Source: Caballeronia humi
Lineage (GTDB): Bacteria > Pseudomonadota > Gammaproteobacteria > Burkholderiales > Burkholderiaceae
Direction: 5' to 3'
DNA length: 64,000 bases
Assembly: GCF_001544475.1 (NCBI RefSeq)
Contig: NZ_FCNW02000001.1
Location: forward strand, 434,001 to 498,000
Under the pieces are notes generated by a model. That model did no database searches. It saw nothing but the letters and a program-made list of their open reading frames with translations, and was not told the origin of the DNA. A program made the translations under genes and the position numbers. Shown piece by piece: positions 7,541 to 23,216 of the stretch. Every line of letters starts with the position of its first letter. Within the stretch, counting starts at the first letter, position 1.

Positions 7541-8683
7541 TTAGAAGCGGTGACGGATACCCGTTGTCACGACGACCTGATTGCCGCTGCTCGACGGAGC
7601 AGTGCCGTAGACGTTGGCGTAGCGGCCATCACTGTTCGTAAATTGCGCGACGCCTTCCGCGTAGATGTCAGTGCGCTTCGACAGCGCATAGTCTGCCTGG
7701 AGGCCAATCTGGTGATACTGCGTGTGGTCACTGTTACGCGAACCCGGCACGGAACCCTTCACGTCCGTGTACGTGTATGCGCCGCCGAGTGCCAATGCGG
7801 GCGTGAGGTTGTAGCGTGCGTTCACCTCATAGTTGTTGAAGCGGAGAGCCGAATCGCCCAGGTCGTACTGGAAACGCGACTGCGTCCACAGTCCGCCGAA
7901 CGTCAGGGCGCCGACCGAGTAGTTCGCGCCCACGCCGTAGGTACGCTGCGACTGGCTCGGAACGAGACCGACGCTAAGGTGATTCGCATCCAGCGTATCG
8001 GTGATCGCACCGCCCGCGTTACCCGAGTTCGTGTTCTGCGTTTGCAGGTAGGCGGCGGCGATCTTGAACGGGCCGTTCGCGTACTGCATGCCGGCGCTGT
8101 AAGCACGGTTCGAAGCAAATCCGCCGGCGGCGTTCGAGAAGCCATAGAGGCCGCCGAACGAGAAGCCGCCGTAGTTCGCGCTTTGGTACTTCACCGAATT
8201 GTTCACGCGCACCGTGTGGTACGTGTTGTCATTGTCGAACGGATGCGCGAAGAACGTACCACCCCAAGAGCCACTCGCCGTCATCGGCCCCAGATAGTCG
8301 ACCACGGAGTCGTATTGGCGACCGAGCGTCACGGTGCCGAAGTCGTTGCTCGTGACGCCGACGAATGCCTGACGGCCGAAAATTCGGCCATCTTGTTGCG
8401 ACCGGCCGTTGGTGACGTCGAAACCGCTTTCCAACGTGAAGATCGCCTTCATGCCACGACCGAGGTCTTCCTGACCCTTCAGGCCCCAGCGGCTATCCTC
8501 TACGTTGCCGCCGGACAGACGTACGGTGGCGTTGTGGCTATTGGCATCACCTTGCGCCGTGGCTTCGTTGTTCACATAGGTAAAGCCCGCATCGACAATC
8601 CCGTACAGCGTCACGCTGCTCTGCGCGCTCGCGGCAGTCGCGAAAGAAGCGGATACGGCCGCCACAATCAGAGTCTTTTTCAT
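7541..8683 (-). CDS. Gram-negative trimeric porin (Burkholderia OmpC-like)
   Basis: 380 residues. The signal peptide MKKTLIVAAVSASFATAASA is followed by QSSVTLYGIVDAGFTYV, the typical first strand of beta-proteobacterial porins. The C-terminus ends VTTGIRHRF with the terminal Phe needed for outer-membrane assembly. Repeated amphipathic strands fit a 16-strand barrel. It provides diffusion of small solutes; substrate specificity is not predictable. AAAGGA lies upstream of the ATG. It is monocistronic between a strong terminator and a long AT-rich spacer shared with the divergent LysR gene. Confidence 0.93.
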   Translation of the reverse strand: MKKTLIVAAVSASFATAASAQSSVTLYGIVDAGFTYVNNEATAQGDANSHNATVRLSGGNVEDSRWGLKGQEDLGRGMKAIFTLESGFDVTNGRSQQDGRIFGRQAFVGVTSNDFGTVTLGRQYDSVVDYLGPMTASGSWGGTFFAHPFDNDNTYHTVRVNNSVKYQSANYGGFSFGGLYGFSNAAGGFASNRAYSAGMQYANGPFKIAAAYLQTQNTNSGNAGGAITDTLDANHLSVGLVPSQSQRTYGVGANYSVGALTFGGLWTQSRFQYDLGDSALRFNNYEVNARYNLTPALALGGAYTYTDVKGSVPGSRNSDHTQYHQIGLQADYALSKRTDIYAEGVAQFTNSDGRYANVYGTAPSSSGNQVVVTTGIRHRF

Positions 8684-8853
8684 GTGTGATCCTTTGAATG
8701 AGTCTTGCGACTCGATTGGTTGCTAAACGCGGCGCTGCACTCTTCGATTGAGCGGGACCACCACGCCTCCGGTTTTCCGGACACCGTTATTCGGCAGACC
8801 AAAGTTTAGGACGCGTCCAATTCCATCAACCACCAAAGAAAACACAAAAATCA

Positions 8854-8870
8854 TTTCGAATAAGTCGAAA
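8854..8870. promoter_or_regulatory. Inverted repeat upstream of the porin
   Basis: TTTCGA-N5-TCGAAA is a perfect 6-bp inverted repeat about 180 bp upstream of the porin ATG in AT-rich DNA. Possible regulator site; the factor is unknown. Confidence 0.35.
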
Positions 8871-8996
8871 AATGCAATTTTGATACGGGAAAACACTTAC
8901 GTTCCATAGGTTTGCCGGTATCTCAAATTTAGATCTGGATTCCGAAATATTCACCGAAGTTGCGCACACACGACAGTGCACTTGTAGCGACGTCCT

Positions 8997-9022
8997 TGAG
9001 ATCTAGGAAATTTCGTATCTCA
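8997..9022. promoter_or_regulatory. Inverted repeat upstream of the LysR gene
   Basis: TGAGAT-N14-ATCTCA lies about 115-140 bp before the LysR ATG, a location typical of a LysR-type recognition site. Its right part, CGTATCTCAT, is identical over ten bases to part of the 19-bp motif at 17017-17035 (read on the minus strand), which may be coincidence. Confidence 0.35.
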
Positions 9023-9136
9023 TCGTGATGGGCAAGGAATTAATATCGCGCGCGTAGCCGGCGCCTCGACTGTCCCGAGCGCTGCCGATCATCCGCCGCG
9101 CCTTCCTGCCAGCGCGCATTTTCATCGGGCAGGACC

Positions 9137-10069
9137 ATGAATCATTTGCAAGCCATGCGCGTTTTTCTGAAAGTCGCGGAAGCGGGATCGTTCGGACGGG
9201 CCGCGGCCGGGCTCGAACTGTCGAACGCTGTCGTGACCCGTTATGTCGCGCTCCTCGAAGCCCATCTCAATACGCGTCTCTTGAACCGCACCACGCGCAG
9301 CGTCTCGCTGACCGAAGCCGGGCGCACCTACGCGCTCGGCTGCAAGGCGGTGCTCGAACAGGTCGAGGAGGTCGAGGCGTCGATCACGAGCAGTTCCACC
9401 GATCCCTCCGGCACGCTCAAGCTCGTCGCGTCGGCGTCGTTTTCCTTGCTCGGGCTCACGCCGCTCCTGAGCGCCTTTCGGGATGGCTTCCCCAACGTGA
9501 AACTCCGCCTGACCCTGCTGCACCGGCCTGTCGATCTCGTCGACGAAGGTTTCGATGTCGGTATTGTCGTGCCGCGGCTCGTCAACAGCGGAACGCTGAT
9601 CAATCGACCGCTGTTCAGGGTGATGCCGGTCGTCGTCGCCGCGCCCGGCTATCTCGCGCTCTACGGCACGCCAGCGCGCCCCGCCGCGCTCACGAAGCAC
9701 GCGTTCCTCGCGCCATCGTCCGATATTCACGGCTCGACGTGGTCGTTCACCAGCCCCTCCGGTGATGACGAGGACGTCACGCTCGATCCCGCGTACACGG
9801 TCAACAACTCGCCGATGCTGCGGCAAGCGGCGATCTGCGGGATGGGCGTGACCGTGCTGCCCGAGAGCCACGTCGCGCGCGACATCGAAAGCGGCGCGCT
9901 CGTGCGTCTCTTGCCGGGTTTCGCGATCAAGGGCGCGGACAAGGAAGTGTCGCTGGTCTATCCTGGGCGCCGGCATGTGTCGGCGAAGACGCGCGCGTTC
10001 GTCGACTTCACGCTCGCCTTTTTCCGCGAGGATGTGTCGGCGGCGCATTTTCAGTCGCCGGCCGCATAA
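9137..10069 (+). CDS. LysR-family transcriptional regulator
   Basis: 310 residues. The N-terminal winged helix-turn-helix (MNHLQAMRVFLKVAEAGSFG, then LNRTTRSVSLTEAGRTY) is the CrgA/DsdC-like form common in Burkholderia. A periplasmic-binding-like effector domain spans about residues 90-300. It is divergent from the porin gene across a 453-bp spacer. Targets and inducer are unknown; the divergent porin is the obvious candidate, and autoregulation is usual for the family. Confidence 0.92.
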   Translation: MNHLQAMRVFLKVAEAGSFGRAAAGLELSNAVVTRYVALLEAHLNTRLLNRTTRSVSLTEAGRTYALGCKAVLEQVEEVEASITSSSTDPSGTLKLVASASFSLLGLTPLLSAFRDGFPNVKLRLTLLHRPVDLVDEGFDVGIVVPRLVNSGTLINRPLFRVMPVVVAAPGYLALYGTPARPAALTKHAFLAPSSDIHGSTWSFTSPSGDDEDVTLDPAYTVNNSPMLRQAAICGMGVTVLPESHVARDIESGALVRLLPGFAIKGADKEVSLVYPGRRHVSAKTRAFVDFTLAFFREDVSAAHFQSPAA

Positions 10070-10091
10070 AAAACGCGGCCGGGGCCGCGTT
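10068..10091 (-). terminator. Intrinsic terminator of the sensor kinase gene
   Basis: A 9-bp GC stem AACGCGGCC/GGCCGCGTT with a two-base loop. On the minus strand it is followed by six T residues, downstream of the kinase stop at 10123. On the plus strand it follows the LysR stop but lacks a T-run, so it mainly serves the kinase. Confidence 0.75.
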
Positions 10092-10122
10092 CGGTATCAC
10101 TTTCGACGTAAGCCGAATTGCG

Positions 10123-13100
10123 TTAAGCGATCGCCGCGCATTGCGATTCGATTCGCTCGAGCAGAATCTCGCAGCGCGCTATCAGCGCCATACCGTCGTC
10201 ACGGCGCTGAACGCGCGATTTCTCCGAGAGATCGCTTCGGAACGCTTCGAGCGCGGCGAGCAACGGCCGATACTGCAACACGCTCGCCGCCCCAAACACG
10301 CGATGATGCCATTCCCTCAGTCGTTCGACCGAGCCGTTTTCGAGCAGCGGCTTGAGCGTCGCGAGGTCGTCGAGGAAGGAAGACACGAACGAGTCCAGCA
10401 GCGCTTTCACCGTCGTTTCGCTGCCCCATAACTGGGTCATATACGTCAGATCGAGTTCGTCATCGGACGTAGGCCACATGGGCGCCATCGATGCAGGCGG
10501 CTTCCGTTCGATCTTCTGCTCGACCGGTTCGGGCGCATCGACGGTGCGCCAGCGGTGCAAATGCTCGCGCAACGTGGCGAGACGGGTCGGCTTGACGAAA
10601 CAGTCGTCCATGCCGGCCTCGCGACACATCCGCGGTTCTTCCGGCGCGGTACTCGCCGTGATGCCGAGAATCGGAAGACGCCGCGACGTGCCCAGTTCAC
10701 TCGTCCGCACGCGCCGCGCAAGCTCGTAGCCCGTCATGTTGGGCATATGACAATCGGTGATCAGGAAGCCGTAGCGCGTGTTCTTGAGTGCCGCGAGCGC
10801 CTCGACGCCATCGTGCGCGACGTCGCAGGCGAAGCCGAGCAGCGAAAGCTGATGCCGGATCAGCTCCTGATTCACCGGATGATCCTCGGCGACGAGCACG
10901 AGTCGGCCGCTCTTCAACGCCTTGTCGCGATCGGGCGCCTGCATGCTCGTCTCGACGCCGCCGGTTGCGCGCGACACGATCTGCGGCAGTCCGGTCAGCG
11001 CGGCGACGCATGCAGCGCCGAGACCGCGCCACGAGATCGGATTGACGCTCACGCGGATGTCGTCGTCGAGGATGCGATAGCCGGTGGGCTTCGGCTTCTC
11101 CGTGACGTGGATCACGCGCGATTTCACAGGCAGCGCGTCCTTGTGCGCATCGCTCAGGAAAACGAGCTCGACGCCGTCGAACGTGCGCGCGCGCTTCAAT
11201 GCGTCGTCGGTGCGCGACAGCACGCGCAGTTCGAGGCCGAGCGCCTGCCCGTAGTCGACCAGCGCCCGCGCGACGCACGCATCGTCGATCGCGATGATGC
11301 CCTTCTTGCCGCGCAGGCCGTCGATCTGGTAGTTCACGGTGTCGACCAGCATCGCGAGCCGCACGGTCATGCGCGTGCCGATGCCCACTTCGCTTTGCAG
11401 ATGAAGCGTGCCGCCCATCAGTTCGACGAGCTTGTGACAAATCGTGAGGCCGAGCCCCGTCCCGCCGAAGCGCCGCGTCGTCGATGTCTCCGCCTGCACG
11501 AACGGCTCGAAGAGGCCCGCCTGAGCGTCCGCCGCGATGCCGATGCCGGTATCCTCGACGCACAATTCGATGATCTGCTCGGCGCCGCGCGTCTTGGCCA
11601 CCTGCACACGCAGCGCGACCTCGCCCTTCATCGTGAACTTGATCGCGTTGCTCATCAGGTTGAAGAGCACCTGACGCAGCCGAACGCTGTCGCCGCACAC
11701 GCTCGCCGCCACTTCCGGCGCGACGTCGACGCGCACCCGCAAGCCCTTCTCGTGCGCGCGGCCCGCGAGCAAGCCGACGGCGCTATCGACGAGTTCGCGC
11801 AAGTCGATCGGCGTCGATTCGATACTGAGGCGCCCCGCTTCGATCTTCGAATAGTCGAGCAGGTCGTCGAGGATTTGCAGGAGCGCGCTCGCCGAGTCCT
11901 GAATCATGCCGAGCATCTGCGCCTGGTCCGGATTGAGCGGCGTGTTCTCGAACACTTCGACGAGCCCCAGCACGCCGTTCATCGGCGTGCGGATTTCGTG
12001 GCTCATCATCGCGAGGAAGTCATCCTTCGCGCGCGATGCGGCTTCGGCGGTGTCGCGCGCCCGCGCCAGTTCGTCGGCGCGCGCGCGCTCGATGCTCGCG
12101 TCGACCCAGTAGCCGCTCCACACGACCGAGCCGTCGTCTTCGCGACGCGCCGCCAGCACGGCGCGAACCCAGCGCTTGCCGCCGTCGGCGGTCGAGCGGA
12201 ACTCGGCGTGCACCGGCTCGAGCGTCAGCGCGGAGCGTTCGATCACGTCGCGAAGCGTGCCTTTGTCCTCGTGATGAATCTGCGAGAGGCAGGCCAATTG
12301 GTCCGCGCCGAGCTCCAGCAGGTCGACGCCGAACAGCGGCCGCGTGTCGCCTCCGATATACGGGAAACTGAGACTGCCGTCGGGTGCGCGGCGCAGTTGG
12401 AACACCACGGCCGGCAGCGAGCGCGTGACGTCGTGCAGACGCCGCTCGTTTTCACGCGCGCGCATTTCGGCGTCGCGGATGTCGGTGATATCGATCATCG
12501 TGCCGACGATGCCCGCCATCGCTCCGTCGGCGGCGTTGAACGTGCCGGTCCAGAAGAGGCCGTGGCGCTGCTGGCCGTGCCGGTCGCAAAACTCGAGTTC
12601 GACTTGCTGGCGCGTCCCGGTCGCGATGCTGAGCGCGGACAATTGGTGAATCTGCTCGCTATATGTCGAGCCCCACGGCATCACGTCGACGGTCGAACGC
12701 CCGATGATTTCCTCGCGGCGCACGCCGAGCGCCTCCTCGAACGCGCGATTCACCGCGATATAGCGATTGTCGAGATCCTTCGCGACAAGCGGATACGGCA
12801 CCACCTCCATCATCGTGCGTTGGAAGCTTAGTTGCGTCGCGAGCGCCTCCTCGGTTTCGATGCGCCGGCTCATCTCGCGTTGCAGGAGGATGAACGCGCG
12901 CAGCGTCACGGCGAGCACGACGCCGATCGCGATCAGCGCCGGCAAGAGACGCAGCGCGTTCACGCTCCAGCCGCTTTGCGGCTGCGAAAGCGCAGCCTGG
13001 CGCGCGACGTTGATCTTCTGCTTCTCGACCTCGGGCATCGCCTTCAGCGCCCGGTCGACGAGCGGCACCAACCCGGCCAGTTCAGGACGCAGCGCGAATC

Positions 13101-14538
13101 CGATGCTCTCCGACTTGCCCGCCGGCCCGAGAATTTTCAGTTGATCGTCGAATCGGGAAGACAAAGCGAGATCGACTGCGGCGAGATTGCCGACCGCCAC
13201 ATCGGCTTCTCCGCTCGCCACGCGATCGAGCGCTTCGTTCAGGTTTCGCACCACGACGAATTTCGCCTTCGGCGCCAGGTTGACAAGGCTGCCGTCCGCC
13301 GCGAGACGCTCGCTGACCGAAACGCGCCGCACGGGCAGATCGTCGAGGTTCTTCACGGCGGCCTGACCGTGCCGTCCGACGATGACGAGCGGGAAGCGGT
13401 CGTGCGGCTCCGTCGCGATGCCGCCTGCCAGTTTGTCCGGGTCCTGCTCGGCGGTGAGGATCATGTCGGCGTCGCGGCGCGCGAACGCCCGCGAAACCGC
13501 CGATGAATCCGCGTACGCGCGACGATCGAACGTCACGCCGAGCACGTTCGACAGATACGCAAGGTACGCCGCAGCGATGCCGCGCGCGCGCCCGTCGGAA
13601 TCGACGTAGCTGAACGGTGCCCAGTCGGCATCGAAGGCGACCGTGATCGGTTGCAAGGCGTGCAGATAACGCCGCTCGTTCGCGCTCAGCACAAGCGGCT
13701 TGCCAGCGTCCGCGCCAGATTGAAGTTTGTCGCTCGAAGCGGAACGGATGTTGTGCAGGCGGTCGGAATCGAGCTTGAGCAGGCGCTCGTTCAAGTCGTT
13801 GCGCAGCGCCACGCGGCCCGCGGGAACCGCAAAGCGCGATTCGTTCAGCTCGCCATTCTGAGTGCGCACGACGCCGAGCGTATCGAATTCGGCGGCGTCG
13901 AGCAGCTGGCTTGCACCGGGCGCGACGCCGAAATACACGTCGGCCGAATGGTCCGCGACGGCCTGCAACGCCTGCCGGCCCTGGCGATAAGCGCGGATCT
14001 TCGCTTCGGGGAATCGTTCGCGGATGAGTCTTTCGAGCGAATATCCCTCCTCGATCGCGACAATCGCCTGACGCATGCCCTCGCGCGAGATCGTCGCGAA
14101 ATCGGCGGTGCGCGCGATCATGATCGACTGATCGAAGGAGTAAGGGACGGTGAAGGTCAGGCAGCCGTTGCGATCGGCGGCGCGCGAGACGTTCGCGAGA
14201 ATGTCGACGTCGCCCGAGCATGCCGCGGCGATCATCTCGGCCATCGTGGAATAGGTGCGCGCGTCGAATCGAACGGCCGGGCCGGTGAGTTCACGCAGTA
14301 CGTCGATGCTCAGGCCGGCGGGCTCGCCGCGTACAACCGTCGCCGATGGGTCCGCCGCTGCCGACAGCACGCCGACCGTCAGGACCGGGTAGTCCTTCAA
14401 CGGCCGGCCGGCCGCGATCGCGCGGGCCGGATCGGCGTGCGCGCCTGGCGCCGACGCGAACAGCATCGAACAAAGCAGCAGGCGAGCACAAAGCAGCGTC
14501 ACACTCGATGCAAAAAAAATTTTACTGAGGTTTGCCAT
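10123..14538 (-). CDS. BvgS-like unorthodox hybrid sensor histidine kinase
   Basis: 1471 residues. Order: signal/TM segment (about 8-36); two periplasmic solute-binding (Venus-flytrap) domains (about 50-265 and 295-510); TM (about 525-552); PAS (575-690); second PAS/PAC (700-820); HisKA with phospho-accepting H847 in MMSHEIRTPMNG; HATPase with N964, DTGIGI and GGTGLGL; a degenerate receiver-like region (about 1078-1185); an intact receiver with D1262 (ITDCHMPNMTG) and K1316; and a C-terminal HPt with H1412 in HRVFGAAS. This is the BvgS/EvgS layout, signalling by His-Asp-His-Asp phosphorelay to a NarL-family regulator. It follows aqpZ by 24 bp. Three candidate partner regulators lie just upstream. 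Confidence 0.93.
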   Translation of the reverse strand: MANLSKIFFASSVTLLCARLLLCSMLFASAPGAHADPARAIAAGRPLKDYPVLTVGVLSAAADPSATVVRGEPAGLSIDVLRELTGPAVRFDARTYSTMAEMIAAACSGDVDILANVSRAADRNGCLTFTVPYSFDQSIMIARTADFATISREGMRQAIVAIEEGYSLERLIRERFPEAKIRAYRQGRQALQAVADHSADVYFGVAPGASQLLDAAEFDTLGVVRTQNGELNESRFAVPAGRVALRNDLNERLLKLDSDRLHNIRSASSDKLQSGADAGKPLVLSANERRYLHALQPITVAFDADWAPFSYVDSDGRARGIAAAYLAYLSNVLGVTFDRRAYADSSAVSRAFARRDADMILTAEQDPDKLAGGIATEPHDRFPLVIVGRHGQAAVKNLDDLPVRRVSVSERLAADGSLVNLAPKAKFVVVRNLNEALDRVASGEADVAVGNLAAVDLALSSRFDDQLKILGPAGKSESIGFALRPELAGLVPLVDRALKAMPEVEKQKINVARQAALSQPQSGWSVNALRLLPALIAIGVVLAVTLRAFILLQREMSRRIETEEALATQLSFQRTMMEVVPYPLVAKDLDNRYIAVNRAFEEALGVRREEIIGRSTVDVMPWGSTYSEQIHQLSALSIATGTRQQVELEFCDRHGQQRHGLFWTGTFNAADGAMAGIVGTMIDITDIRDAEMRARENERRLHDVTRSLPAVVFQLRRAPDGSLSFPYIGGDTRPLFGVDLLELGADQLACLSQIHHEDKGTLRDVIERSALTLEPVHAEFRSTADGGKRWVRAVLAARREDDGSVVWSGYWVDASIERARADELARARDTAEAASRAKDDFLAMMSHEIRTPMNGVLGLVEVFENTPLNPDQAQMLGMIQDSASALLQILDDLLDYSKIEAGRLSIESTPIDLRELVDSAVGLLAGRAHEKGLRVRVDVAPEVAASVCGDSVRLRQVLFNLMSNAIKFTMKGEVALRVQVAKTRGAEQIIELCVEDTGIGIAADAQAGLFEPFVQAETSTTRRFGGTGLGLTICHKLVELMGGTLHLQSEVGIGTRMTVRLAMLVDTVNYQIDGLRGKKGIIAIDDACVARALVDYGQALGLELRVLSRTDDALKRARTFDGVELVFLSDAHKDALPVKSRVIHVTEKPKPTGYRILDDDIRVSVNPISWRGLGAACVAALTGLPQIVSRATGGVETSMQAPDRDKALKSGRLVLVAEDHPVNQELIRHQLSLLGFACDVAHDGVEALAALKNTRYGFLITDCHMPNMTGYELARRVRTSELGTSRRLPILGITASTAPEEPRMCREAGMDDCFVKPTRLATLREHLHRWRTVDAPEPVEQKIERKPPASMAPMWPTSDDELDLTYMTQLWGSETTVKALLDSFVSSFLDDLATLKPLLENGSVERLREWHHRVFGAASVLQYRPLLAALEAFRSDLSEKSRVQRRDDGMALIARCEILLERIESQCAAIA

Positions 14539-14562
14539 GGCGGCGGTTCCCGTCGATGCGCG

Positions 14563-15309
14563 CTATCGCTGCGGCAAGTCGCTGAACTTTCGATCGGCGG
14601 TCTTCGTGCCTTCCCGCGCGCCTCGTCCGAAAAGCAATGGAAAGGACACGCCGGCGAGTATTCCTCCAGCGAGCGGAGCGGCCCAGAAGAGCCACAATTC
14701 GTCGAGCGCCCAACCGCCCACGACGAGCGCCGGCCCGGTCGAGCGCGCCGGATTCACCGACGCACCCGTCACCGGCATCGTCACGACGTAAATCAGCGCG
14801 AGCGTCAATCCGACGATCAACGGGCCGCCGACGCGAAATGCGCGACCAGCCGACGTCGCGAGCTTCACGATTACGAAGGCGAAAGTCATCACGGCTTCGA
14901 TCACGAATGCCGCATGCAATTGGTAATTTCCGGGCGAATGGCTGTCGTAGCCATTCACGCCGAAACTGGGCGCGTAGAGTTCGAAACCGGGCCGCGCGCG
15001 TGCGAGGAAATACAGCAAGGCCGCGCCCGATGTAGCACCGGCCAACTGCGCAAGAATGTAGGGAACCAGATCACGGACCGGAAACCGATTCGCGACCGCG
15101 AGGCCGACGGTCACGGCCGGGTTGAAGTGAGCACCGGAGATGGGCCCAAGAAGATAGGAGGCAGCGGTCATCGCAAGACCGAACGCGATCGATTGCGCGA
15201 GAACGCCCGGGTCCGCCACGAAGCTGCCCGCGGCCAATGCACTGCAACCGCATCCCATCAGAACGAGCCAGAAGGTTCCCGCGCATTCGGCAGTCAGTCT
15301 TCTAATCAC
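14563..15309 (-). CDS. aqpZ: Aquaporin Z-type water channel
   Basis: 248 residues with six membrane helices and both pore motifs: HFNPAVTVG near residue 60 and SVNPARSTG near residue 185. The second-half selectivity-filter region fits water-specific aquaporins more than glycerol facilitators, but that is an inference. It is 24 bp upstream of the BvgS-like kinase on the same strand, so the two are probably co-transcribed. A copy of the 19-bp island motif lies about 120 bp upstream of its start. Confidence 0.88.
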   Translation of the reverse strand: MIRRLTAECAGTFWLVLMGCGCSALAAGSFVADPGVLAQSIAFGLAMTAASYLLGPISGAHFNPAVTVGLAVANRFPVRDLVPYILAQLAGATSGAALLYFLARARPGFELYAPSFGVNGYDSHSPGNYQLHAAFVIEAVMTFAFVIVKLATSAGRAFRVGGPLIVGLTLALIYVVTMPVTGASVNPARSTGPALVVGGWALDELWLFWAAPLAGGILAGVSFPLLFGRGAREGTKTADRKFSDLPQR

Positions 15310-15421
15310 GTTGCTCCTTGAATTTGGAATGAAATTCGCGCGACTACGGACACCAACGGCGTCCGTGCAGACATTTCGATACGGGGAAACGAAGAGTCTG
15401 ACGGGCAGAACGTTTTACCGA

Positions 15422-15440
15422 CATCAGATAGGTCCCAAAG
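15422..15440 (-). promoter_or_regulatory. Island motif, copy 1 (upstream of aqpZ-kinase)
   Basis: Read on the minus strand: CTTTGGGACCTATCTGATG. It matches copy 2 at 15 of 19 positions and copy 3 at 13 of 19. Centre about 120 bp upstream of the aqpZ start. The outer halves resemble the RcsB-type pattern TARGA-N4-TCY. Confidence 0.55.
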
Positions 15441-15472
15441 CGGTCTTTGCACGCATTGTCGAAAGGGGCTGT

Positions 15473-16117
15473 TTACGTCAGCCCGATCTGCTGCGCATAG
15501 GCAATCAACTCGGATTCGGAATCGAGGCCAAGTTTGCGCATCGCGCTACGTCGCTGGGTAGCGACGGTCTTGCTGCTGCGATTGAAGTAATCCGCGATTT
15601 CTGGAATGGGCATGCCGCTCGCGTACATCCGAAAGACGTCCCACTCGCGCGCGCTCAACGTACCCGCGCGGGCCGGCACGTCGGGCAAAGTTGCGGACAA
15701 CAATTCATATGCGTGCAGCGATGCAAAACGCCGTCCGCGAGTAATTGCGTTGATCGCCTCGGTCAACGATTCCAGCGCGTCGCGCTTGTCGACGATGCCC
15801 TCCACGCCCAAGTTCATCAGCCCGGCCAACATTTGGGCATGCGCGATCATCGTGACCGCAACGATGTGTGGCCGCGGCGCCTCCCGCGCGAGGCGCCTCA
15901 GGAACGAGATGGAATTACTCTCGCCATTCATTCCCTGCATGCCGATATCGGAAAACACGAAGTCGCAAGAGTGGTCTGAGAGCAGGGATGCGAGTGAATT
16001 CGCGTCGCTGGCCATGCCCACCAAATCGATTCGCCGGTCCCGCCTCAGGTAGGCGCCAATGCCTTCGCGCGCTACCGGATGGTCGTCCGCGACGATGACC
16101 CTTATTTTTCTCTGCAT
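15473..16117 (-). CDS. NarL/LuxR-family response regulator 1 (RcsB/BvgA-like)
   Basis: 214 residues. The receiver has the acidic pair in VIVADDHP (residues 8-15), phospho-acceptor D57 in VFSDIGM, a conserved Thr in VAVTM and Lys in GIVDKRD, so it should be phosphorylatable. The C-terminal LuxR-type HTH (LSAREWDVFRMYASG, then SSKTVATQRRSAMRKLGL) is of the RcsB/BvgA type. It is the regulator gene closest to the aqpZ-kinase unit and the least RcsB-like of the three. Likely receives phosphate from the BvgS-like kinase. Confidence 0.9.
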   Translation of the reverse strand: MQRKIRVIVADDHPVAREGIGAYLRRDRRIDLVGMASDANSLASLLSDHSCDFVFSDIGMQGMNGESNSISFLRRLAREAPRPHIVAVTMIAHAQMLAGLMNLGVEGIVDKRDALESLTEAINAITRGRRFASLHAYELLSATLPDVPARAGTLSAREWDVFRMYASGMPIPEIADYFNRSSKTVATQRRSAMRKLGLDSESELIAYAQQIGLT

Positions 16118-16226
16118 CGTTCTTCTTTTTCTGTTTTGAGGTTACGAGTCTCTCTCCGGACAGCCTCGACCCTCTCCGGCTCGCAACACGAATGTTGGCA
16201 TCTCGAGGTGTTGAATCAGCCCCGCT

Positions 16227-16898
16227 TCACGCCCGGCGCGCCTGAACGAGTCCGCTGTCGAATGCGAAACGGTATAGCTCCGCGTCGGTCGACAGATCGA
16301 GCTTTCGCATCGCTGCGCACTTCTGGGCGCTGATCGTTTTGACGCTGCGTCCGAGTTCCTTGGCTATCTCCGTGACGTTTCCGCCCCGTGCATAGCGCGC
16401 GATGACATCGAGTTCGCGACGTGTCAGCTTCTTGCGAATCAGGTCCACGCGGTTCGCCACATTGGCGTCCGCGAGTAACGCTCGCACTGACGGCCCGAGA
16501 TAATCCTCCTGCGCGAGAACGGTCACAATCGCCACATAGATCAGTTCGAGCCGGTCCTGCTTACTCACCATCGCTTTCGCGCCCGACTCGAGTGCCTGCG
16601 CGATCAGCTCCGCGTCGGTCATCATCGATAAAACGACGATCGCTGCTTTCGGATGGCGGCTCGCGACATATCTGATCAAATCTATGCCGTCGCCATACTT
16701 GCCACCGGGCATGAAAAAATCCATGACCACGACGTCGCATTCCTGCGTCGCAAGCACTTCGACTAATTCAGTCGAATCCTGAGCCCGGCAAACGATTTCG
16801 ATATTCGGGATATTAGCAATCAGTTTCTCGATAGCGAGAATAACCAAGGGATGGTCATCGGCGACTGCCAGCCGTATTAATTTAGTGAACGCATGCAT
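16227..16898 (-). CDS. NarL/LuxR-family response regulator 2 (RcsB-like)
   Basis: 223 residues. The receiver has VADDHP, phospho-acceptor D60 and the stretch MPGGKYGDGIDLIRYV, nearly identical to the corresponding segment of enterobacterial RcsB as I remember it. A conserved Ser is in VVLSM and Lys in AMVSKQD. The HTH contains VTEIAKELGRSVKTISAQK, again strongly RcsB-like. It is transcribed in the same direction as its two relatives, 109 bp upstream of regulator 1. A copy of the 19-bp motif lies about 128 bp before its start. Confidence 0.9.
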   Translation of the reverse strand: MHAFTKLIRLAVADDHPLVILAIEKLIANIPNIEIVCRAQDSTELVEVLATQECDVVVMDFFMPGGKYGDGIDLIRYVASRHPKAAIVVLSMMTDAELIAQALESGAKAMVSKQDRLELIYVAIVTVLAQEDYLGPSVRALLADANVANRVDLIRKKLTRRELDVIARYARGGNVTEIAKELGRSVKTISAQKCAAMRKLDLSTDAELYRFAFDSGLVQARRA

Positions 16899-17016
16899 TT
16901 ACCCGCTCCTTGTATCGGGCGCAACTCCGGATTAAGGGTCTAATTCGGAACAGCAAAAAGCTTAAACGCCGCCTAAAATAACGCACGTAAGCATCAGTCA
17001 TCGACGCATTCTTCAA

Positions 17017-17035
17017 CATGAGATACGTCCTAAAT
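17017..17035 (-). promoter_or_regulatory. Island motif, copy 2 (upstream of regulator 2)
   Basis: Read on the minus strand: ATTTAGGACGTATCTCATG. It shares 15 of 19 positions with each of the other two copies. Centred about 128 bp upstream of the regulator 2 start, nearly the same distance as copy 1 has to aqpZ. Confidence 0.6.
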
Positions 17036-17053
17036 CAGTAAAAATTTCCATAA

Positions 17054-17701
17054 TCAAGCCAATCCATGTGCGCGCGCGAACGCGAACAAGCCGGGATCGT
17101 TCCGAACTCCGAGTTTGCTCATGGCGTCGCGTTTCTGGCGGCTGATGGTTCGCACGTCGCGATCCAGCGAGCGCGCGATTTCGGTAATTGACATGCCGCT
17201 AGCGAACATGCGAACCACCTCGATCTCACGCGGAGAAAGCCGCGGACCGTCCGCGAGCGCGTCAGTTTCCGCGCCGGCGACCGCGAGGGCCGCGACAATC
17301 GAAGTACTCAAGTACCGCCGTCCAACCCCGGCGAACCGCACTGCGGCAGCCAGTTCCTCCATTGATTCGACTTTGTTAAGCAAGCTCATCGCGCCAGCAT
17401 TCAGGATGGAACGCAAGATCGCCACGTTGCTCATGCTCGTCAGCACGACGATGCGTATATGAGGCCAGTCGCGACACACCCGCCGAATTAACCGCAAGCC
17501 GTCTTCGGTCTGCGAACCCTGCTCCGGCATGGCGAAATCCGTGACGAGGACGTCACAACGCGTCTTCCCCAACAGCGCAATAAGCGCGCTGGCATTGACC
17601 GCCTCTCCTACGATTTCCAGACTTTCATCGGTGCTGAAAGTTGCCCGGATACCCAGCAGCACAAACGGATGATCGTCTGCTAAAACCACACGTAACTTCA
17701 T
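17054..17701 (-). CDS. NarL/LuxR-family response regulator 3 (RcsB-like)
   Basis: 215 residues. The receiver has VVLADDHPFVLLGIR, phospho-acceptor D55 in VTDFAMPE, Thr in VVLTSM and Lys in SLLNKVE. The HTH reads LSPREIEVVRMFASGMSITE then RTISRQKRDAMSKLGV, closely matching the RcsB DNA-binding domain. It is the most upstream gene of the island and is preceded by a 536-bp AT-rich spacer containing motif copy 3. Its partner kinase is probably the BvgS-like protein, the only kinase in the island. Confidence 0.9.
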   Translation of the reverse strand: MKLRVVLADDHPFVLLGIRATFSTDESLEIVGEAVNASALIALLGKTRCDVLVTDFAMPEQGSQTEDGLRLIRRVCRDWPHIRIVVLTSMSNVAILRSILNAGAMSLLNKVESMEELAAAVRFAGVGRRYLSTSIVAALAVAGAETDALADGPRLSPREIEVVRMFASGMSITEIARSLDRDVRTISRQKRDAMSKLGVRNDPGLFAFARAHGLA

Positions 17702-17907
17702 AGCGACCCTCCCCGGTTTTTATTTTGTTTATGCTTCGGCCAGAATCCAGGCCGACATACCATGCTTCTTTTCATGACTCACAGACTTCAGCAGCACTAC
17801 CGGAAATCAGAACGACTTAAATTTCAGAGGTGCTGCATTACGAATGCTTAAAATGAAAACGCTTGCCGCATATTTTCAGCAGCGTAATCGGCGTAAAATC
17901 CATTCTC

Positions 17908-17926
17908 CATACGATTTGTCCTAAAT
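17908..17926 (-). promoter_or_regulatory. Island motif, copy 3 (upstream of regulator 3)
   Basis: Read on the minus strand: ATTTAGGACAAATCGTATG. Identical to copy 2 in the nine-base ATTTAGGAC half. Centred about 216 bp upstream of the regulator 3 start. Confidence 0.55.
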
Positions 17927-18052
17927 GCTTTTTACCCACTTTTGCGCGATGGCTAGAGACGCGCTAATTTAGGCGGGCACGAATGCATTCCCTATCAGCT
18001 AAGGCTTATTCGAGTTGAGTGGCGGAAGTGTCGCTACATTAGAGACAGAAGT

Positions 18053-18083
18053 GACATTTACTGTCGCTTAAATGTCTTTTTTT
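18053..18083 (+). terminator. Orphan terminator-like hairpin (possible sRNA end)
   Basis: GACATTTA/TAAATGTC is a perfect 8-bp stem with an eight-base loop, followed at once by seven T residues on the plus strand. No plus-strand gene precedes it, so it may end an unannotated small RNA, or it may be a protein-binding palindrome. Confidence 0.4.
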
Positions 18084-18181
18084 GTGGAAGGCGTGCGGCG
18101 AGGAAAAGCACGCTATACGAGATTTTTCTCAGATTTACAAGCCAAATTAAGAAGACGCAAAAGCGTGTAAAAACGCAGGCT

Positions 18182-18218
18182 AAAAAAAACCCCACGACGT
18201 TTCAGATCGCGGGGTTTC
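18182..18218 (-). terminator. Intrinsic terminator of ssb
   Basis: An AAACCCC/GGGGTTT stem enclosing a short partly paired loop, followed on the minus strand by a run of eight T residues, 20 bp after the ssb stop codon. Confidence 0.85.
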
Positions 18219-18237
18219 TTGCCAATCTACTGAAAGA

Positions 18238-18771
18238 TTAAAACGGAATATCGTCATCCATCTCGTCAAACCCGCCGCCGGCCGGCGCGCTTGGGCGACT
18301 AGATCCACCGCTCGCCCCGCCACCGCCCGCGGCACGCCCGGCACCCGCCGGCGCGCGGCCACCGCCACCGCCTCCGCCACGCTCCGCAGGCGCGCCACGG
18401 CTATACCCGCCGTCATCACCGCCACCGCCCGCGCCGCCGCGACCACCCAGCATCTGCATCTGGTCCGCCACGATCTCGGTCGAATACTTTTCCTGCCCCG
18501 CCTGGTCCGTCCATTTGCGCGTACGGATACGCCCCTCGATATACACCGACGAGCCCTTCTTCAGATATTCGTTCACGATCTCCGCGAGCCGTCCGAAAAA
18601 CGCCACGCGATGCCATTCCGTGAGTTCCTTCATTTCGCCGGACGATTTGTCCTTGTAGCGGTCGGTCGTCGCGAGACGGATGTTCGCCACGGCGTCGCCG
18701 CTTGGCAGATAGCGGGTTTCCGGGTCGGCGCCCAGGTTTCCGACGAGAATGACCTTATTGACGGATGCCAT
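18238..18771 (-). CDS. ssb: Single-stranded DNA-binding protein
   Basis: 177 residues from ATG 18771, which has GGAG seven bases upstream; the open frame continues 29 codons further but lacks SSB-like sequence. An OB-fold domain occupies about residues 1-110 ([20 protein letters not shown]). It is followed by a long Gly/Ala/Ser-rich disordered linker and the acidic tip DEMDDDIPF that recruits replication and repair partners. The protein binds ssDNA as a tetramer. The MFS gene lies upstream in the same direction, and uvrA is divergent beyond it, a conserved arrangement in this group. Confidence 0.97.
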
Positions 18772-18898
18772 GATTTCTCCTGTTGTTCGATACCTTGCCG
18801 TCGGACGCGGCGCGCGGCTCACACGGACTCGCAAGTCCCGAACCGTCACCGCCCCCAACTGAATTCGATTGACCTGAAACCTTGCTTAACTCGCGCGC

Positions 18899-20101
18899 TT
18901 AAACCACGCGCTGAACCTTGCGCGGCGGAGCCTTCATATTCGCGGCCACGACGAGCCACGCGAACACCAGCGCAGAACACGCAAAAAAGACGGCGCTCTG
19001 CCCGTCCACCTTCAGCAGCCAGCCGCCGATCACGCCACCCAGTGCGAGTCCTATCGACTGCGTCGTGTTGTAGACCCCCGCCGCCGCGCCCTTGCGCGTG
19101 CCCGGCGCGAGCTTCGACACGAGCGACGGCTGCGACGCCTCCAGCACGTTGAAACCGAGGAAGTACACGAACAGGATCGCGGCCACAGACCATAGCGTAT
19201 GGGGAGCCGCGCCCAATAACAACTGGCCGATCAGGATAAGCCCGATCGCGCCCAGCATCACGCTCTTCATTTTTCCACGTTTCTCGGCGGCGATGATGGC
19301 GGGCACCATCATCACGAACGCGAGCCCCATCACCGGCAGGTAAATCTTCCAGTGCGCCGCGACCGGCAGGCCGCCCGCCTCCAGAATGCGCGGCACGACG
19401 AGAAAGAGCGCCGTCTGCGTGGCGTGCAGCACGAGCACGCCAAAGTTCAGACGCAGCAATTCGACGTTGTGCAGCACTTCGGCGAACGGTGCCTTGACGT
19501 GCACGGGCGGCGTCGGCGCATCGGGGACGACCCACAGCACCACGCCCACCGCCAGAATCGACAGGAAGCCGATCACCGTGAAAAGGCCGCTCATCCCGAC
19601 CCAGTGGAACACGATCGGCGCACCGACGATCGCCACCGCGAACGACACGCCGATGCTCGCGCCCACCATCGCCATCGCCTTCGTGCGGTTTTCCTCGCTC
19701 GTGAGATCGGCGATGAACGCGATTACCGCTGACGACACCGCGCCCATCCCCTGAATCACGCGCCCGGCGATGATCCACGTCATCGAGTGGCCGACCGCCG
19801 CGACGAAGCTGCCGATCGCGAACACGATCAGCCCAAACACGATCACGGGCTTGCGGCCGAGCTTGTCCGAGATCCAGCCGTAAAAGATATAGAGCATCGA
19901 CTGCGTGACGCCGTACGCGCCGAGCGCCAGGCCGACGAGAAAGACGTTGTCGCCGCCGGGAATCGTCTTCGCATAGATCGAGAACACCGGCATGATCATG
20001 AAGAGGCCGAGCATCCGCAGCGCGAAAATCGCGGCGAGCGACACGGTCGCGCGCAATTCGGGCGCGCTAAGACGTGAAGACATGGCAGACGGATTGGACA
20101 T
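18899..20101 (-). CDS. MFS transporter (YajR-like)
   Basis: 400 residues with 12 predicted membrane helices. Motif A is GWISDKLGRKPVIV near residue 75, and GRVIQGMGAVSSAVIAFIAD near residue 113 is the motif C-like region. It resembles proteobacterial YajR-type drug/efflux permeases but lacks an evident C-terminal YAM domain. Its position between uvrA and ssb is conserved in Burkholderiaceae, without implying a repair role. Substrate unknown. Confidence 0.85.
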   Translation of the reverse strand: MSNPSAMSSRLSAPELRATVSLAAIFALRMLGLFMIMPVFSIYAKTIPGGDNVFLVGLALGAYGVTQSMLYIFYGWISDKLGRKPVIVFGLIVFAIGSFVAAVGHSMTWIIAGRVIQGMGAVSSAVIAFIADLTSEENRTKAMAMVGASIGVSFAVAIVGAPIVFHWVGMSGLFTVIGFLSILAVGVVLWVVPDAPTPPVHVKAPFAEVLHNVELLRLNFGVLVLHATQTALFLVVPRILEAGGLPVAAHWKIYLPVMGLAFVMMVPAIIAAEKRGKMKSVMLGAIGLILIGQLLLGAAPHTLWSVAAILFVYFLGFNVLEASQPSLVSKLAPGTRKGAAAGVYNTTQSIGLALGGVIGGWLLKVDGQSAVFFACSALVFAWLVVAANMKAPPRKVQRVV

Positions 20102-20342
20102 CAGAAGCGGGAAATGTTGGAGAGTCGCGTTGGCCGGGGCGCGAGATGAAGCCCCGGCGCGGCCGCCTTGTAGTTACTGGAAACGGCACTATATGAGACG
20201 CAGTGCCCGGGCGCGCCACCCGGCTGAAACGCGCCGCGTGACAACCCTTCCGGCGCTTCGCTGACGCTGTCGGGCACGGAAACGGCGCCCTTGAAAAGTC
20301 GTTATAGTAGCAGGTTTAGCCCCCTCACTTTCCGCCCGGTTC

Positions 20343-23216
<2,874 letters not shown>

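What the first reader, a model, noticed from the sequence alone, without database searches (positions are those of the whole stretch)
10123..18237. BvgS-like phosphorelay kinase with three different RcsB-like regulators and an aquaporin
One unorthodox kinase (two periplasmic binding domains, PAS pair, H847, D1262, HPt H1412) lies with three full-length, phosphorylatable NarL/RcsB-family regulators (D57, D60, D55) that differ in sequence, all in one orientation. BvgS/EvgS systems known to me use one regulator. Three RcsB-like outputs from one kinase would allow branched or heterodimeric control (RcsB is known to heterodimerise with other LuxR-type proteins). Co-direction of the kinase with aqpZ at 24 bp suggests an osmotic or envelope signal. 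Seen: domains, residues, order. Inferred: that all three are fed by this kinase.
Basis: partly seen in the sequence, partly recalled or inferred. Interest (0 to 1): 0.8.

Follow-up and report, generated by a model that had tools for sequence, protein, structure and literature searches.

The report
One kinase, three self-wired RcsB-like regulators
In a group of soil bacteria one sensor kinase gene is inherited together with three different gene regulators, which it likely switches on, and the same kind of short DNA element stands in front of their genes and the kinase's, so the set is predicted to control its own production.

Summary
In detail: a 1471-residue BvgS-like kinase (H847, D1262, H1412), an aquaporin and three full-length RcsB-family regulators (D57, D60, D55) lie in one orientation in a Caballeronia genome. 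The aquaporin and periplasmic sensor are dispensable: one Caballeronia clade lost both and kept the regulators and kinase core. New finding: a 14-bp inverted repeat like the E. coli RcsB operator stands upstream of RR3 (73 of 73 loci, about 3 expected), RR2 (39 of 72, about 1.5), aqpZ-kinase (62 of 74, about 2) and a neighbouring LysR gene (33 of 42, about 0.7). The two RcsB residues that touch bases are nearly fixed within each regulator class and differ between classes (K/T, K/A, R/R). Most likely this is a branched, self-wired phosphorelay. Phosphotransfer, DNA binding and heterodimers are untested; natural losses of one regulator leave most of the other operators in place, which speaks against one obligatory heterodimer. 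New variant of a known kind.

The parts
10123..14538 (-). BvgS-like unorthodox histidine kinase, 1471 aa (two periplasmic binding-protein domains, two PAS, HisKA, ATPase, receiver-like linker, receiver, HPt)
   Evidence: phospho-sites
11998..12000 (-). H847 codon (autophosphorylation site, by homology)
   Evidence: HisKA 837-902; 81 of 81
10903..11343 (-). kinase residues 1066-1212: receiver-like fold, taken as a pseudo-receiver
   Evidence: model (mean pLDDT 76), weak receiver-domain matches; no Pfam receiver match there
10753..10755 (-). D1262 codon (receiver)
   Evidence: 81 of 81
10303..10305 (-). H1412 codon (HPt)
   Evidence: HPt match, 22.7 bits; 80 of 80, one more row ends before it
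14563..15309 (-). aqpZ-type aquaporin, second copy in this genome
15473..16117 (-). RR1, RcsB-family response regulator, D57
16227..16898 (-). RR2, RcsB-family response regulator, D60
   Evidence: fold matches RcsB
17054..17701 (-). RR3, RcsB-family response regulator, D55
17910..17923 (-). P1 box TAGGACAAATCGTA, upstream of RR3
   Evidence: a box in 73 of 73 loci
17019..17032 (-). P2 box TAGGACGTATCTCA, upstream of RR2
   Evidence: 39 of 72 strict
15424..15437 (-). P3 box TGGGACCTATCTGA, upstream of aqpZ-kinase
   Evidence: 62 of 74
9004..9017 (+). P4 box TAGGAAATTTCGTA in the LysR/porin divergent intergenic region
   Evidence: 33 of 42
9137..10069 (+). LysR-family regulator gene, convergent with the kinase; predicted target

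Best explanation
This is a conserved cluster of one BvgS-like kinase and three RcsB-family regulators that likely works as a branched phosphorelay: the kinase would pass phosphate from H847 to D1262 to H1412 and on to all three regulators, which are predicted to bind an RcsB-type 14-bp box found in front of RR3, RR2, aqpZ-kinase and a neighbouring LysR gene, and so to set their own and the kinase's expression. Shown by sequence: the gene order, the conserved phospho-sites, three orthologous regulator classes, and the boxes with their conservation. Inferred: which regulators the kinase phosphorylates, that these regulators are the proteins that bind the boxes, the sign of regulation, and whether dimers are homo- or heterotypic. 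The three classes share most of the phosphate-contacting scaffold of RcsB but carry different, class-typical residues at the two base-contacting positions, so they are predicted to read related but different half-sites. The sensory input is replaceable: two binding-protein domains, one, a remnant or none precede the same core, so the signal in derived lineages would come through the membrane segment or the PAS domains.
For: Order RR3-RR2-RR1-(aqpZ)-kinase with all three regulators in 66 of 80 evaluable loci (79 named + window); the losses need at least 4 (RR3), 1 (RR1) and 2 (RR2) changes on the kinase tree. Three clades (SH-aLRT 85, 100, 99; 85-row subsample). Phospho-acceptor Asp in every row. 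Boxes: P1 73/73 (2.8 expected; 66 of 2218 background 600-bp windows), P2 39/72 (1.5), P3 62/74 (2.0; 68 of 8754 background 155-bp windows), RR2-RR1 gap 0/72 (0.5 expected), P4 33/42 (0.67). Boxes go with the gene behind them: five of six RR3-less loci have no P1 but keep P2 and P3; RR1-less loci keep P3 in 6 of 6; RR2-less L071 has no P2. RcsB's base-contacting K180 and S184 (PMC5829831, passages) correspond to K 74/74 and T 70/74 in RR1, K 78/78 and A 77/78 in RR2, R 74/74 and R 70/74 in RR3. RR2's model: the top 16 PDB matches are all RcsB. No box within 500 bp upstream of the genome's other RcsB-like regulator or its other BvgS-like kinase.
Against: No interaction, phosphotransfer or binding data. 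The loci are related, so counts are not independent trials; the P1 pattern was chosen after aligning 14 of the 73 promoters, and the LysR region was tested because the window showed a site there. P2 is absent in one Paraburkholderia clade (11 loci) and P4 in 9 of 42 loci, six of them one Caballeronia clade that has the whole system. A P1-like site also stands in G009, a reduced genome with no RR3 match. The receivers differ at the RcsB Ile14 position (C or V, L, F), so one HPt need not serve all three equally. Promoter and terminator pattern scans found none on the genes' strand, so transcription units are inferred from boxes and gaps only. Kinase-regulator distance correlations (RR2 0.94, RR1 0.90, RR3 0.78; 66 loci) could come from shared ancestry alone.
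Confidence: 0.6

Rival explanations
1. Only one regulator (most likely RR2, whose divergence follows the kinase best) is the phosphorelay output; the other two are auxiliary partners, or are fed by another kinase.
For: RR2 is absent from the fewest loci (2 of 80, though by two events against one for RR1), has the highest distance correlation with the kinase domain (0.94) and a fixed residue at the RcsB Ile14 position (L 78 of 78). RR3 decays repeatedly (remnant matches in 6 of 6 RR3-less loci, weak in L026). A second BvgS-like kinase without a neighbouring regulator exists in the genome.
Against: Acid pair, Asp and Lys are kept in nearly all rows of all three classes, unlike RcsA, whose N-terminal domain is not a typical receiver (PMC4125116, section 21). 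RR2 is itself missing in two loci that keep RR3 and RR1.
Confidence: 0.25
2. The 14-bp boxes are bound by another protein, for example the neighbouring LysR-type regulator or the genome's other RcsB-like regulator, and the three regulators act elsewhere.
For: P4 lies where a LysR autoregulatory site would lie, and the box is roughly palindromic with T and A ends. The other RcsB-like regulator has a similar recognition helix (KTISTQKN).
Against: P1-P3 are present where one search found no LysR beside the block (for example L018, L022), although that gene may lie elsewhere; nine loci have LysR but no P4. The 5-4-5 spacing and half-sites match the RcsB operator half-sites TTAGGAA/TCTAAGA (PMC5829831, passages), not the T-N11-A of LysR boxes (recalled). 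No box upstream of the other RcsB-like regulator or of seven LysR paralogues.
Confidence: 0.15
3. Three independent two-component outputs that happen to be neighbours: each regulator has its own distant kinase and the clustering is a relic of tandem duplication.
For: The genome has four further Pfam HPt hits in other long open frames, and the window's three regulators are only 32-36% identical.
Against: Co-inheritance in one order across genera while aqpZ, the sensor domains and the flanking genes change, and common operators on the regulator and kinase units.
Confidence: 0.1

Closest known systems
Rcs phosphorelay (RcsC-RcsD-RcsB with RcsA, BglJ, GadE, MatA), Enterobacterales
   Same: All three regulators have RcsB as best NCBIfam model and RR2's fold matches RcsB first; operator spacing and half-sites are of RcsB type (PMC5829831, passages); RcsB binds as homodimer or heterodimer, with motifs alike in one half and varying in the other (PMC5651002, passages).
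   Different: One kinase carries HK, receiver and HPt together; three receiver-plus-HTH regulators instead of one RcsB plus auxiliary proteins; all three are below the RcsB equivalog cut-off.
BvgAS / EvgAS
   Same: Kinase with tandem periplasmic binding-protein domains, PAS, HK-receiver-HPt; the sensor matches solved BvgS and EvgS periplasmic chains by sequence; NarL-family regulators.
   Different: Three regulators instead of one (one per kinase in BvgAS and EvgAS: recalled), an aquaporin gene, a receiver-like linker between ATPase and receiver, and natural loss of the binding-protein domains.
PvrSR/RcsCB of Pseudomonas aeruginosa PA14
   Same: Kinases with an RcsB-type regulator and a second regulator in one gene group (PMC3842833, abstract and outline).
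   Different: Two sensors act on one RcsB; the second regulator, PvrR, is a phosphodiesterase, not a second RcsB-like DNA-binding protein.
BldM-WhiI heterodimer, Streptomyces
   Same: Two response regulators form a functional heterodimer with its own promoter group (PMC4125116, abstract and section 21).
   Different: Atypical orphan regulators from separate pathways, not clustered with one phosphorelay kinase.
mrgRS of Burkholderia pseudomallei
   Same: RcsB/BvgA-like regulator next to a hybrid kinase (PMC1557856, passages).
   Different: One regulator, a different kinase architecture; reported there as absent from other Burkholderia species.

Membership tests
BvgS/EvgS-type unorthodox kinase | Tandem periplasmic SBP_bac_3 (Venus flytrap) domains, PAS, HisKA, ATPase, receiver, HPt in one chain | tested here: met
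   HPt by a sub-threshold Pfam match plus conserved H1412. Relatives with fewer binding-protein domains exist
EvgS (equivalog) | NCBIfam PRK09959 cut-off 1995 bits | tested here: not met
   257 bits; it may work like EvgS but is not EvgS
BvgAS / EvgAS system | A single cognate regulator beside the kinase | tested here: not met
   three regulators
RcsB (equivalog) | PRK10840 cut-off 235 bits | tested here: not met
   112.9, 139.6, 152.6 bits; best model for all three, below cut-off
RcsB-type response regulator (broad) | Receiver with acid pair, Asp, Thr/Ser, Lys plus GerE HTH; RcsB fold | tested here: met
   fold checked for RR2 only
RcsB-type operator | Two 5-bp half-sites 4 bp apart, half-sites like TAGGA and TCTTA | tested here: met
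   reference half-sites from PMC5829831 (passages)
RcsB-type operator | Bound by the regulator | not testable with these tools
   needs gel shift or ChIP
Branched phosphorelay | One HPt phosphorylates several regulators | not testable with these tools
   needs phosphotransfer profiling
Response-regulator heterodimers | Physical and functional heterodimer | not testable with these tools
   asymmetric P2 and P3 boxes (halves identical in 2 of 61 and 6 of 74) are compatible, but the asymmetric flhDC site binds an RcsB homodimer too (PMC5829831)
Aquaporin Z | NCBIfam PRK05420 cut-off 256 bits | tested here: not met
   253.1 bits, just below; the MIP subfamily model is passed (172.3 against 171.25)

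The most novel reading that the evidence does not exclude
A three-regulator combinatorial code behind one kinase: RR1, RR2 and RR3 pair in several homo- and heterodimers, each class reads its own half-site through class-typical residues (K/T, K/A, R/R), and the asymmetric boxes in front of RR2 (TCCGA or TCTGA against TCTTA), aqpZ-kinase (TCCTA, TCTTA or TCCCA against TCTGA) and LysR are addresses for particular dimers, so one phosphorelay signal is split into graded outputs by dimer composition.
Probability: 0.25. Interest if true: 0.85.

Novelty: new variant of a known kind. Interest (0 to 1): 0.6.

Why it matters
Transcription-factor heterodimers are called rare in bacteria, with RcsB long the only response regulator known to form them (PMC4125116, section 21). 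Here three co-inherited RcsB-like regulators with class-typical base-reading residues stand beside one kinase, with four predicted operators and natural strains that lack RR1, RR2 or RR3. That makes branching, dimer composition and operator choice testable in soil bacteria, and it shows that the output side of a BvgS-like system can be kept while its sensor is worn away.

Tried and rejected
Aquaporin as the core of an osmotic sensor: rejected as a necessary part. Its loss together with the sensor 5' end in Caballeronia may be one deletion of neighbouring DNA (2 changes of aqpZ on the tree in all), so it is not counted as proof of functional linkage.

Genome-wide regulon by pattern. In the window's genome TMGGANNNNTCSKATGG has three sites, one of them P1. 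The site about 30 bp before ubiC is kept in genomes whose regulators are broken (L198 from G005) and, farther from ubiC, in G003, where one search found no RR3 match, so it is no evidence for this regulon. In Paraburkholderia ATTCGGANNNNTCYGATT has matches in 31 of 77 genomes (reversed control 0); 15 of the 30 loci fetched are P1 itself, five more lie between map and a gene that looks like a glycosyltransferase (by eye, no search), in genomes not shown to carry the system. Left as leads.

Obligatory heterodimer with RR3: not supported, because P2 stays in 5 of 6 and P3 in 6 of 6 loci that lost RR3. Half-site change with regulator loss: RR1-less strains have altered P1 right halves, but they are one clade, and the RR1-bearing L066 beside it shares TCTGA, so nothing is claimed. 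L086, one of the two RR2-less loci, belongs to the clade that has no P2 anyway, so only L071 informs on P2.

Distance-correlation test of kinase-regulator coupling: dominated by shared ancestry. Rfam search of 8000-20500: nothing. Promoter/terminator scan: nothing on the genes' strand. P4 control in genomes without an intact block: G018 and G045, where kinase matches are partial or in pieces, have no P4 box; G001 (fragmented assembly, no RR3 orthologue, the LysR match runs to a contig end) has one; inconclusive.

Literature: eight searches; none of the listed titles or abstract starts describes this gene block. Most subscription papers are not in that library. The bacLIFE paper was checked for BvgS and sensor kinase only (passages).
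Full report
WHAT IS THERE. The window lies in a Caballeronia genome (inferred: C. terrestris kinase 96% identical over its best segment, contig C1 of a 7.6-Mb assembly). On the minus strand, behind ssb, stand RR3, RR2, RR1, aqpZ and a 1471-residue kinase. Added here: kinase residues 1066-1212 form a receiver-like fold (mean pLDDT 76; one PDB match below E 0.001, the top 29 receiver domains). Pfam sees no receiver there and the family consensus has Glu where the window's FLSD has Asp, so I take it as a pseudo-receiver.

CO-INHERITANCE. A scan of one genome per species gave 345 kinase relatives, of which the best 80 were kept, so what follows holds for the close relatives. L040 is cut by its contig. 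Of the other 79 plus the window, 66 carry all three regulators in the order RR3-RR2-RR1, 6 lack RR3, 6 lack RR1, 2 lack RR2. On the kinase-core tree this needs at least 4, 1 and 2 changes. The six RR3-less loci hold RR3 remnant matches, weak in L026. The regulators are three clades, each one side of a branch (SH-aLRT 85 for RR1, 100 for RR2, 99 for RR3; subsample of 85 rows); mean identity is 32-34% between classes and 56-59% within. The phospho-Asp is kept in all 74, 78 and 74 rows. A full-length RR3 orthologue (66% or more, no stop) is listed in 44 of 58 genomes of the genus. RR1 matches at E below 1e-79 are in 41 of 200 family genomes, in 4 of 25 genera, one of them with stops. In an even sample of the order RR2 passes 1e-60 in 2 of 250 genomes, both of the window's genus.

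SENSOR AND AQUAPORIN ARE REPLACEABLE. The same core follows two binding-protein domains (window), one (L014), a short remnant (L053, L027) or none (L059, L061, L063, L088). aqpZ is absent beside the block in 17 Caballeronia loci with the eroded sensor and in L086 (2 changes on the tree). The window's aqpZ is a second aquaporin; the other in the genome is 54% identical. So aqpZ is not a core part, and an osmotic signal is not supported.

OPERATORS. An alignment of 14 promoters showed a 14-bp inverted repeat. A strict pattern, read on either strand, then found it within 600 bp upstream of RR3 in 73 of 73 loci (72 named, those 14 among them, plus window; L052 dropped because RR3 lies at its contig end) against 2.8 expected from a first-order Markov model and 66 of 2218 background windows. 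With the pattern slightly widened and read on the sense strand, the RR3-RR2 gap has it in 39 of 72 (1.5 expected), the RR2-RR1 gap in 0 of 72 (0.5), the 300 bp behind RR1 in 62 of 74 (2.0). With a matrix built from those hits the best P2 site lies 110-134 bp before RR2 in all 61 loci outside one Paraburkholderia clade; that clade's 11 loci have no P2 and were dropped from the P2 half-site counts. The divergent LysR/porin region next to the kinase has a box in 33 of 42 loci (0.67 expected), in 30 of them 120-155 bp before LysR; it lies some 320-345 bp from the porin start, so LysR is the likelier target. The half-sites are of RcsB type: the E. coli flhDC site has TTAGGAA and TCTAAGA (PMC5829831, passages). 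P2 and P3 are asymmetric: halves identical in 2 of 61 and 6 of 74; P1 in 25 of 73. The right half of P2 is TCTTA in 24 of 28 Caballeronia and 26 of 33 other loci; that of P3 is TCTGA in 22 of 28 and 33 of 46.

NATURAL KNOCKOUTS. Five of six loci without RR3 have no P1 within 1400 bp before RR2 and keep P2; the sixth (L037, an RR3 fragment in one frame with RR2) keeps P1 and has lost P2; P3 is kept in all six; loci without RR1 keep P3 in six of six; both loci without RR2 lack P2, of which only L071 informs, since L086's clade has no P2. The boxes go with the gene behind them, and RR1 or RR3 is not needed for the other boxes to persist. This argues for operators of separate units and against one obligatory heterodimer.

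READING HEADS. In the RcsB-DNA structure only K180 and S184 make sequence-specific base contacts (PMC5829831, passages). Their equivalents are K and T in RR1 (74/74, 70/74), K and A in RR2 (78/78, 77/78), R and R in RR3 (74/74, 70/74). Of the phosphate-contacting residues T181 and Q185 are kept in nearly all rows, K186 in 64/74, 78/78 and 74/74, S183 in 47/74, 78/78 and 66/74; the window's RR1 has A and R at S183 and K186. The three thus likely bind in one manner but are predicted to read different bases. RcsB Ile14, whose mutation impairs RcsB homo- and heterodimers (PMC5651002, passages), is mostly C or V in RR1, L in RR2 and F in RR3.

WHO ELSE COULD FEED THEM. The genome has five Pfam HPt hits, this kinase's included. 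One other kinase is BvgS-like (L127), with no regulator found beside it; one further RcsB-like regulator (L119) has no such kinase beside it. Neither has a box upstream.

VERDICT. Observation confirmed and extended. Best reading: a branched, self-wired phosphorelay with three RcsB-like outputs; kinase feeding, box binding and dimer types are inferred. New variant of a known kind.

Noticed in passing
L119:8672-9397 (G000 contig C39): An orphan RcsB-like regulator without a kinase neighbour; matches of this kind (39-44% to RR3) are listed in 48 of 58 genomes of the genus. Recognition helix KTISTQKN.
   Followed up: partly
L127:4194-7757 (G000 contig C35): A second BvgS-like kinase (SBP_bac_3 match, HPt) without a regulator found beside it; it may pair with the orphan regulator.
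   Followed up: no
L201, L213, L215, L200 (around base 1501): TCGGAYGAGTCCGATGG is listed in 21 of 58 Caballeronia genomes; in three loci read it follows TTGACAAT about 130 bp before a response-regulator-like gene, and L200 has a variant. Possible further target.
   Followed up: partly
L162:5771-5787: A box-like site about 30 bp before ubiC, kept also where the regulators are broken; probably unrelated.
   Followed up: partly
L202 (around base 1501, genome G009): A P1-like site whose downstream flank resembles the RR3 promoter of one Caballeronia clade, in a reduced genome without an RR3 match: perhaps a relic.
   Followed up: no
L037:7120-8046: The N-terminal part of an RR3 lies in one open frame with a whole RR2, and a P1 box now stands before it.
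   Followed up: no
L164, L165, L174, L179, L188 (around base 1501): In five Paraburkholderia loci an RcsB-type palindrome lies between map and a gene that looks like a glycosyltransferase.
   Followed up: no
window 8807-8820: A second box-like site about 125 bp before the porin gene, seen in the window and C. terrestris (L010) but at that place in no other of the loci checked.
   Followed up: yes
L011-L016, L062 upstream of RR3: A further RcsB-type box (TGAGAGTGTTCCTA) nearer to RR3 (about 127 bp in L012) in one Caballeronia clade.
   Followed up: no
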